Shown: positions 26,671 to 27,714 of the stretch, piece after piece | How the letters are laid out: every line of letters starts with the position of its first letter | How positions within the stretch are numbered: the first letter of the stretch is position 1 | Program-made: the position numbers and the translations under genes | DNA from: Brucella pseudintermedia | GTDB taxonomy: Bacteria; Pseudomonadota; Alphaproteobacteria; Rhizobiales; Rhizobiaceae | Assembly (NCBI RefSeq): GCF_008932435.1 | Contig: NZ_WBWE01000016.1 | Location: forward strand, 1 to 64,000 | Direction of reading: 5' to 3' | DNA length: 64,000 nt | Notes under the pieces: generated by a model | What the model was told of the DNA's origin: nothing | Databases searched by the model: none | Seen by the model: the letters and a program-made list of their open reading frames with translations, nothing else

Positions 26671-27714
26671 TCACGCCACGCAACTGCTATTTGCATAGTT
26701 GTCGTTGGCGGGCACTATCTCGGTTTCTAGGTACGCTTCGATGAACGCTTGCGCTGCGGGCGCAACGATTGCATTGCCGTAACCGCGCAGTCGTCCCACT
26801 CGGGCGGCAGCCCCATGAGCCAGCGGGAATGTGATGGGTTCAACAGGCCGCCACTTTCCATCCCGGCAAAAGAGCCAGTCAGCATCTCGCCAGAAGCCGC
26901 TAGTCGGGCTGGACCGTCCGACAATGCTGCTGCGTGGTTCAGCGTGATGTTCGGAGTTGTGAAATCCGGAGATGGATGGCGCAGAGCATCCGTCGTCGTT
27001 GTTGTCGGCCACCCCGCCAAATTCGCTTGCCTCGGCAACTGGTCGAACCGATCCTTGCCCGTGTCCGAACGTGGACGAATGTCCGCCCCGCTGTCCTTCC
27101 AGTCCCGTGAAGCGGGCGTCACCCACGATGCCAAAGCCGCATCCGATGTCAGCGCGCCACCCGCTTGGTTCGGCCCGCTGTTCGTCCCGTCGCTCGCGCG
27201 TGGTGTGTTCCACCCTTTTTCCAACCCAGTAGAGCCGTTGTCGGATATGCGGCGCGCCGAAGCCCGCAGCGCAGGTATCGACCGCCCCGCTGGCGTAGCC
27301 CGATCCTTCCAGGTCAGCTTGTACAAGGTCGAGCCAGCCAAGTCCGTCCTTGCTCGCAACCTGCTCGCCAAAAACGACTGGAGGGCGGCAGTTTTCAATA
27401 AGCCAGTGGAAGTGCGGCCATAGGTGCCGCTCGTCAGTAAACCCTGCTCCTTTGCCTGCCGCGCTGAAAGGCTGACATGGGCAGGAACCGGTCCAGACCG
27501 GCCGGTCGTCTGGCCATCCTGCTCGGCGGAGTGCGTAGGACCAGACGCCGATCCCGGCGAAGAAGTGGCATTGTGTGTATCCGATAAGGTCGGAAGGTCG
27601 AATATCGACAATTGAACGTTCATCAACATCTCCCGGTGCGATGTGGCCAGCCCCGATTAGCTCGCGCAACCAAGCGGCCGCTTTCGGGTCAAATTCGTTG
27701 TAATAGGCTGTCAT
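26671..27714 (-). CDS. DNA (cytosine-5) methyltransferase
   Basis: 347 aa from MTAYYNEFDPKAAAWLRELI, behind GAGGTC. Motif I is CHFFAGIGVWSYALRRAG, motif IV holds the catalytic Cys in WTGSCPCQPFSAAGKG, motif VI is VFGEQVASKD, and motif VIII is APHIRQRLYWVG. The Ser/Gly/Arg-rich middle (about 180-285) is the target-recognition part. Motifs IX-X read HGAAARVGRLRGYGNAIVAP. The tail has PANDNYANSS. The length is usual for phage Dcm. A second protein is encoded in the +1 frame along nearly the whole gene (26727-27623). Role: protecting phage DNA from host restriction. Confidence 0.93.
   Translation of the reverse strand: MTAYYNEFDPKAAAWLRELIGAGHIAPGDVDERSIVDIRPSDLIGYTQCHFFAGIGVWSYALRRAGWPDDRPVWTGSCPCQPFSAAGKGAGFTDERHLWPHFHWLIENCRPPVVFGEQVASKDGLGWLDLVQADLEGSGYASGAVDTCAAGFGAPHIRQRLYWVGKRVEHTTRERRDEQRAEPSGWRADIGCGFGIVGDARFTGLEGQRGGHSSTFGHGQGSVRPVAEASEFGGVADNNDDGCSAPSISGFHNSEHHAEPRSSIVGRSSPTSGFWRDADWLFCRDGKWRPVEPITFPLAHGAAARVGRLRGYGNAIVAPAAQAFIEAYLETEIVPANDNYANSSCVA
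26727..27623 (-). CDS. Gene nested out of frame inside the cytosine methyltransferase gene
   Basis: 298 aa in the +1 frame, wholly inside the Dcm gene. ATG 27623 has GGGAG 6 nt upstream. The product reads MNVQLSIFDLPTLSDTHNAT, then YGRTSTGLLKTAALQSFLAS, LYKLTWKDRATPAGR, ALRASARRISDNGSTG, NTPRASDGTNSG, WVTPASRDWKDSG, and HSRWLMGLPPEWDDCAVTAM. I recognise this as a recurrent phage protein family of unknown function (repeated TPxxRDWK and GLPPEW motifs), often located at dcm genes. Such coherent sequence over 900 nt in an alternative frame is unlikely by chance. Expression is inferred, not shown. Confidence 0.6.
   Translation of the reverse strand: MNVQLSIFDLPTLSDTHNATSSPGSASGPTHSAEQDGQTTGRSGPVPAHVSLSARQAKEQGLLTSGTYGRTSTGLLKTAALQSFLASRLRARTDLAGSTLYKLTWKDRATPAGRSIPALRASARRISDNGSTGLEKGWNTPRASDGTNSGPNQAGGALTSDAALASWVTPASRDWKDSGADIRPRSDTGKDRFDQLPRQANLAGWPTTTTTDALRHPSPDFTTPNITLNHAAALSDGPARLAASGEMLTGSFAGMESGGLLNPSHSRWLMGLPPEWDDCAVTAMQSLRPQRKRSSKRT

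What the first reader, a model, noticed from the sequence alone, without database searches (positions are those of the whole stretch)
26727..27623. A whole gene nested out of frame inside the cytosine methyltransferase gene
Both frames are coherent. The Dcm frame has motifs I, IV (PCQ), VI, VIII and X. The +1 frame has its own GGGAG-ATG and encodes 298 aa with repeated TPxxRDWK-like and GLPPEWD motifs that I recognise as a phage family commonly found at dcm loci. The overlapping part of Dcm includes its variable target-recognition region, which is free to vary, and this may be what allowed a second product to evolve. If both are expressed, it is one of the longer nested gene pairs in phages and links methylation to an unknown partner.
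Basis: partly seen in the sequence, partly recalled or inferred. Interest (0 to 1): 0.75.

Follow-up and report, generated by a model that had tools for sequence, protein, structure and literature searches.

The report
Methyltransferase split across two reading frames
A phage DNA-methylating enzyme appears to be made as two proteins read from the same stretch of DNA in two different frames: the gene read in the usual frame lacks one standard piece, and the hidden overlapping gene supplies it.

Summary
The nested gene is real. The +1 frame (26727-27623, minus strand) lies inside the C5-cytosine methyltransferase gene (26671-27738). Of 366 fetched loci (duplicates included), 366 keep the pair at the same +1 offset. 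Third bases of conserved four-fold alpha codons match 0.62 in the overlap against 0.27 expected. Overlap-aware dN/dS of the nested frame is 0.60, or 0.10 by a rougher second ratio.

It is most likely not an unknown partner but the enzyme's missing half. The catalytic frame (alpha) has motifs I-VIII and X but no recognisable motif IX. The nested frame (beta) carries TPxxxD repeats and a motif-IX-like block. In single-chain relatives the repeats and IX lie in one frame between alpha-like I-VIII and X. This is the partition of M.EcoHK31I, whose motif IX sits on a second polypeptide (PMC3404938, passages); that its second gene is nested I only recall. No sequence comparison with M.EcoHK31I was possible.

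So: new member of a known kind. New here are the pair's spread in phages and the alternative arrangements (nested, partly overlapping, single-chain). Expression, assembly and activity are inferred, not shown.

The parts
26671..27738 (-). alpha: catalytic subunit, C5-cytosine methyltransferase with motifs I-VIII and X, no recognisable IX (355 aa)
   Evidence: PF00145 46.9 bits against cut-off 22; phrog_363 E 1.9e-91; conserved columns
26727..27623 (-). beta: nested +1 gene, 298 aa (300 aa if started at 27629), proposed recognition / motif IX subunit
   Evidence: phrog_1008 E 9.8e-34; selection; 366 of 366 loci
27630..27634 (-). GGGAG, Shine-Dalgarno-like, six bases before the ATG at 27623
   Evidence: SD-preceded beta-frame starts in 151 of 222 sequences against 36.2 expected
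27547..27564 (-). alpha motif I, FFAGIG
   Evidence: motif name recalled
27463..27480 (-). alpha motif IV, PCQPFS (catalytic Cys)
   Evidence: role recalled
27226..27243 (-). alpha motif VIII, RQRLYW
   Evidence: motif name recalled
27249..27332 (-). beta N-terminal conserved module (STLYKLTWK...RASARR)
   Evidence: conserved columns; the best modelled part of beta, residues 81-130
26988..27212 (-). beta TP-repeat region (WNTPRASD, WVTPASRDW, WPTTTTTD), proposed target recognition
   Evidence: positions; aligns with the TP-repeat region of single-chain relatives; function inferred
26796..26846 (-). beta motif-IX-like block LLNPSHSRWLMGLPPEW
26764..26784 (-). alpha motif X, GYGNAIV, directly downstream of beta's IX block on the DNA

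Best explanation
The locus encodes a two-subunit C5-cytosine DNA methyltransferase. Alpha (26671-27738) supplies AdoMet binding and catalysis (motifs I-VIII) and motif X. Beta, read in the +1 frame from its own start inside alpha, supplies the TP-repeat (proposed target-recognition) region and motif IX. On the DNA the pieces lie in the order of an ordinary C5-MTase (I-VIII, recognition region, IX, X), but the middle stretch is read in the +1 frame. The two would assemble into one enzyme that methylates phage DNA, presumably against host restriction. Shown here: both frames, selection on both, the motif partition, a single-chain counterpart, enrichment of SD-preceded starts. Inferred: separate translation, assembly, activity, phage role.
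For: 366 of 366 loci keep both frames at +1; 138 of 138 distinct loci fetched by alpha hold beta in one ORF. Conserved four-fold alpha codons: third-base match 0.617 against 0.270 expected over 46 overlap columns, 0.319 against 0.266 over 7 columns outside. Beta dNN/dNS 0.60 (0.54-0.67) over 62 pairs. SD-preceded start 151 of 222 against 36.2 expected. IX pattern found in the catalytic frame of none, and in a +1 ORF of 227, of 291 distinct main-set loci (12 no IX found, 52 no catalytic ORF found). Beta profile 143-286 aligns to the TP-repeat and IX region of 17 single-chain relatives (probability 90%, E 1.4e-6; reversed control E 0.61), alpha 10-181 to their N-terminus (E 9.6e-21). M.EcoHK31I has the same motif partition (PMC3404938 passages).
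Against: No experiment. Beta alone is not modelled reliably (pLDDT 59, pTM 0.27) and has no fold or PDB sequence match. Alpha's motif X aligns only weakly to single-chain relatives (E 0.019). PMC3404938 places the predicted recognition domain of M.EcoHK31I on the large subunit, not the small. 71 of 222 sequences show no SD-preceded start by my pattern. The window's first ATG (27629) has no SD spacing; the start is a choice.
Confidence: 0.83

Rival explanations
1. Ribosomes shift frame inside alpha, so that the +1 segment is joined to alpha in one fused polypeptide, rather than beta being made from its own start.
For: The pieces are in the linear order of a normal C5-MTase, with only the middle in +1; single-chain relatives exist; in 9 distinct loci IX and X both lie on the +1 ORF, which one shift could join to alpha.
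Against: SD-preceded beta starts in 151 of 222 against 36.2 expected; X on alpha in 220 main-set loci would need a second shift back. I did not search for slippery sites.
Confidence: 0.08
2. Beta is a true protein with another job (a regulator, or an anti-restriction or other partner) and not a part of the methyltransferase.
For: Beta has an N-terminal module without a counterpart in the alignment to the catalytic frame of single-chain relatives; 11 of 17 single-chain loci still hold a +1 ORF with an N-module-like pattern.
Against: Alpha lacks IX and beta has it; beta's C-terminal half corresponds to the IX region of single-chain relatives.
Confidence: 0.07
3. The +1 frame is a non-coding by-product of alpha's sequence and G+C-rich codon use.
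For: The +1 frame of these genes tends to be open: mean P(open) 0.18, median 0.055 over 284 sequences. Beta is rich in S, T, P, A, G and R.
Against: Third-base fixation follows beta's conserved blocks and is near or modestly above expectation in beta 2-51; beta dN/dS is below 1 by both ratios; SD starts enriched.
Confidence: 0.02

Closest known systems
M.EcoHK31I (and M.EaeI), two-polypeptide C5-MTase, YGGCCR
   Same: Large subunit with I-VIII and X, motif IX on a second, smaller polypeptide (PMC3404938 passages; 'naturally split', PMC3439449 passages). A nested second gene in another frame is recalled, not seen: the primary paper is not held.
   Different: Here a phage gene without a restriction partner seen nearby; beta is 298 aa and carries TP-repeats, while PMC3404938 gives the small subunit of M.EcoHK31I only motif IX. 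Sequence relation and specificity untested.
M.AquI, two-polypeptide C5-MTase, CYCGRG
   Same: Split with IX on the second subunit (PMC3404938 passages).
   Different: In M.AquI X is on the second subunit; in the window X is on alpha. Nine distinct related loci (such as L531) do have IX and X on an overlapping +1 ORF.
Nested pair of Escherichia phage K1ind1 (gp32/gp33) and of Paenibacillus phage Jacopo (56/57)
   Same: Nested +1 pair, both genes annotated as methyltransferase in the records.
   Different: Shorter beta (230 and 234 aa); the records state no subunit relation.
Single-chain phage C5-MTases such as Mycobacterium phage prophiGD91-2 gp27
   Same: Carry the alpha-like catalytic part, LPTP repeats, IX block and X.
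   Different: All in one frame.

Membership tests
M.EcoHK31I-type nested two-subunit C5-MTase | Large subunit has I-VIII and X but not IX | tested here: met
   Window alpha; IX pattern in the catalytic frame of none of 291 distinct main-set loci, 64 of which were not classifiable by pattern
M.EcoHK31I-type nested two-subunit C5-MTase | Motif IX on a second polypeptide | tested here: met
   Conserved LNPxHSRWLMGLPPEW block; aligns to the IX region of single-chain relatives, E 1.4e-6
M.EcoHK31I-type nested two-subunit C5-MTase | Second gene nested in another frame of the first (feature recalled) | tested here: met
   Window and 366 of 366 loci
M.EcoHK31I-type nested two-subunit C5-MTase | Sequence homology to the M.EcoHK31I subunits | not tested
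   Sequence not in hand; searches of plasmids and E. coli genomes found prophage-like loci, none identified as M.EcoHK31I
M.EcoHK31I-type nested two-subunit C5-MTase | Predicted recognition domain on the large subunit | tested here: inconclusive
   Alpha 204-257 and most of 264-279 have pLDDT below 50 and alpha is weakly constrained there; TP-repeats are on beta
M.EcoHK31I-type nested two-subunit C5-MTase | Both polypeptides needed for methylation; YGGCCR target | not testable with these tools
   Needs an assay
M.AquI-type split C5-MTase | IX and X both on the second subunit | tested here: not met
   X is on alpha in the window
PF00145 C-5 cytosine-specific DNA methylase (alpha) | Profile match over the curated cut-off | tested here: met
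   46.9 bits against 22, but only profile positions 66-169 match; TIGR00675 36.5 bits, under its cut-off of 100.65
phrog_1008 (beta) | Profile match | tested here: met
   E 9.8e-34 over residues 14-291; no Pfam match but a chance one at E 0.44, no NCBIfam match

The most novel reading that the evidence does not exclude
Nested split C5-methyltransferases form a large, old class in phages of Proteobacteria and also of Paenibacillus, held in the +1 phase (293 of 293 split cases by pattern), with specificity carried by the mostly unannotated nested subunit. The class includes nested (X on alpha), partly overlapping (IX and X on beta) and single-chain forms, so it records moves of a protein segment between two reading frames of one gene. 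Many phage 'dcm' genes in databases would then be half-enzymes that cannot work when cloned alone.
Probability: 0.55. Interest if true: 0.72.

Novelty: new member of a known kind. Interest (0 to 1): 0.55.

Why it matters
It turns an apparent curiosity into an enzyme architecture, and says that phage 'dcm' genes of this family should not be cloned or annotated alone. The nested subunit would hold sequence specificity. With hundreds of diverged pairs, partly overlapping forms and single-chain relatives, the family is a good natural data set for how overlapping genes arise, are held in one phase, and are resolved.

Tried and rejected
Chance open frame: rejected. Programmed frameshift: less likely, not excluded (no slippery-site search was done). 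Fold of beta: model too poor, Foldseek hits not meaningful. PDB search with the beta profile: no hit at E <= 10. Pfam and NCBIfam: nothing for beta beyond a chance hit at E 0.44. Finding M.EcoHK31I or M.EaeI itself: not found; K. aerogenes plasmid locus L597 turned out phage-like, with both frames in pieces, and four E. coli loci opened of 68 records were phage-like. A first motif-pattern classification was too strict and was replaced. A first dN/dS run used only the best profile stretch and was rerun on full extents with the same conclusion. Column-shuffled hhalign controls: best E 0.11 of 20, but at least one run failed on input format, so I rely on the reversed control, E 0.61. Literature: searches listed no paper that by title, abstract start or the passages I opened describes a nested methyltransferase pair in phages; the library holds only open-licence papers. 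Passages, not whole papers, were read.

Full report
What is there. On the minus strand, ORF 26671-27738 (alpha, 355 aa) is a C5-cytosine methyltransferase (PF00145 46.9 bits; phrog_363 E 1.9e-91). Inside it, at +1, lies an open frame of 300 codons (26727-27629; 298 from the ATG at 27623, which has GGGAG six bases upstream). Its protein matches phrog_1008, 'DNA methyltransferase', at E 9.8e-34. The surroundings look like a phage replication module: Prim-Pol/AAA protein, MT-A70 methyltransferase, Gp157 family, helicase, sliding clamp.

Is it chance? Shuffling alpha's synonymous codons gives 3.3 stops on average in the nested frame and an open frame in 0.52% of 5000 shuffles. For 284 distinct related sequences the median is 5.5% and the mean 18%, so openness alone is weak evidence for any single G+C-rich gene.

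Conservation of the arrangement. Searches with beta, with alpha and with a profile of each (best 80 kept per call) gave, with the window's own locus, 366 loci; 366 of 366 carry both profiles in overlapping ORFs at the same +1 offset. These loci were fetched because they encode alpha or beta, and several are the same contig fetched twice. Among those fetched by alpha (144 loci, 138 distinct), 138 of 138 hold beta in a single ORF, with joint profile coverage of at least 0.77. Among 207 distinct beta-fetched loci, beta is spread over two ORFs in L054, L070 and L184, and alpha in L040, L070, L165 and L184. In the phage collection 221 records match beta and 405 match alpha; the extra alpha matches include distant methyltransferases of Mycobacterium, Paenibacillus and Gordonia phages. 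Of 60 related genomes 5 match, the window's own included; one of these, G048, has two TGA in the matched stretch, and its alpha frame also ends early.

Selection on both frames. In 222 sequences (of 285; those whose best alpha match spans under 300 profile positions were dropped) I took alpha columns with a conserved four-fold-degenerate residue. Over 46 columns in the overlap, third bases match between diverged sequences 0.617 of the time against 0.270 expected from each gene's own codon use; 43 of 46 exceed expectation. For 7 columns outside the overlap the figures are 0.319 and 0.266, 6 of 7 above. The strongly fixed third bases sit where beta is conserved (mainly beta 54-63, 83-127 and 245-279); in beta 2-51 they are near or modestly above expectation. 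Counting substitutions by their effect in both frames over 62 pairs that share no sequence (from 937 candidate pairs), beta has dNN/dNS 0.60 (0.54-0.67) and dSN/dSS 0.10 (0.06-0.20); alpha has dNN/dSN 0.36. The ratios over SS rest on 235 near-saturated sites and are rough. In alpha's variable region (residues 181-280) beta is the more constrained frame, 0.47 against 0.78. Among codons with equal first two bases, four-fold third bases differ in 0.29 before the overlap, 0.17, 0.14 and 0.09 in its three parts, and 0.24 after it. An SD-preceded ATG or GTG in the beta frame near the expected start is present in 151 of 222, against 36.2 expected from synonymous redraws.

What beta is. Alpha's conserved columns include motifs I, IV, VI, VIII and X but nothing like motif IX (motif names recalled). 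Beta's conserved C-terminus reads LNPAHSRWLMGLPPEWD in the consensus, to be held against RLTPTECERLQGFPDGY of a canonical MTase in the same genome (L593). In 17 distinct single-chain relatives, found from a Mycobacterium prophage protein, TP-repeats and a IX block lie in the catalytic frame between VIII and X. Profile-profile alignment matches beta 143-286 to that region (probability 90%, E 1.4e-6) and alpha 10-181 to the N-terminus (E 9.6e-21); alpha's motif X aligns right behind IX, but weakly (E 0.019); reversed beta gives E 0.61. These E-values are for one comparison each. The alpha model matches C5-MTases, M.HhaI and M.HaeIII among them, over part of its length; its residues 204-257 and most of 264-279 have pLDDT below 50. 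Beta alone is not modelled reliably.

Mechanism. The simplest account is a heterodimer: alpha binds AdoMet and catalyses, beta brings target recognition and motif IX, each made from its own start on the same DNA. The partition is that given for M.EcoHK31I (PMC3404938, passages: I-VIII, X and the predicted recognition domain on the large subunit, only IX on the small). Here the TP-repeats on beta suggest that recognition lies on beta. Assembly and activity are inferred.

Other arrangements, by motif pattern. Of 291 distinct main-set loci, 220 are nested with X on alpha, 7 are +1 with X unclear, 12 have no IX found and 52 no catalytic ORF found; none is single-chain or in another phase. In the sets fetched with more distant relatives (64, 52 and 75 distinct loci) the nested form with X on alpha occurs in 23, 12 and 6; +1 with X unclear in 14, 2 and 0; IX and X together on an overlapping +1 ORF in 0, 1 and 8; single chain in 0, 2 and 12 (17 in the last set with a laxer pattern); the other 27, 35 and 49 were not classified. 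All 293 split cases are +1. In 11 of 17 single-chain loci a +1 ORF with an N-module-like pattern still overlaps the catalytic region.

Annotation. K1ind1 and Jacopo records list both genes. The four E. coli loci that I opened, of 68 records, list only features in the alpha frame, though beta is there. In Erythrobacter phage R6L and Stenotrophomonas phage SOVA965 the feature called methyltransferase lies in the beta frame and alpha is not listed.

Novelty. The kind is known from M.EcoHK31I and M.AquI. Its spread in phages, the fixed +1 phase, the repeats on the nested subunit and the single-chain and partly overlapping relatives were not met in ten paper searches (listed in Tried and rejected), which cover open-licence papers only. 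Sequence membership with M.EcoHK31I could not be tested.

Noticed in passing
window 28030-28611 (-); L598 3210-3866; L597 5409-5867: An adenine-type methyltransferase (MT-A70 in the window) lies close upstream of the cytosine pair; the same neighbourhood recurs in an E. coli prophage-like locus and a K. aerogenes plasmid.
   Followed up: partly
L505-L509, L512, L515, L516, L518, L522, L529: In 11 of 17 single-chain relatives a +1 ORF with the beta N-module pattern still overlaps the catalytic region, although IX has its place in the catalytic frame. What that ORF does is unexplained.
   Followed up: partly
L531 2438-3031 and 2841-3485: AquI-like arrangement: alpha ends after VIII and a partly overlapping +1 ORF carries repeats, IX and X.
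   Followed up: partly
L371 1484-1984; L372 2044-2427: Records name the beta-frame ORF a methyltransferase and miss the catalytic frame.
   Followed up: yes
L586 (genome G048): A decaying copy: alpha frame ends early while a 225 aa beta-frame ORF with the IX block stays open.
   Followed up: no
G000:C10, C4, C40 (L592, L593, L595/L596): The same genome holds three other PF00145 places outside the window.
   Followed up: no
window 26176-26667 (+): A 163 aa ORF on the opposite strand between the primase and the methyltransferase, without a Pfam match.
   Followed up: no
window 22266-23006 (-): An outer-membrane beta-barrel protein gene (PF13505) near the replication module.
   Followed up: no
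window 18926-19080 and 46892-46967: tRNA-Thr and tRNA-Met side by side, and a tRNA-Lys; possible prophage landmarks.
   Followed up: no
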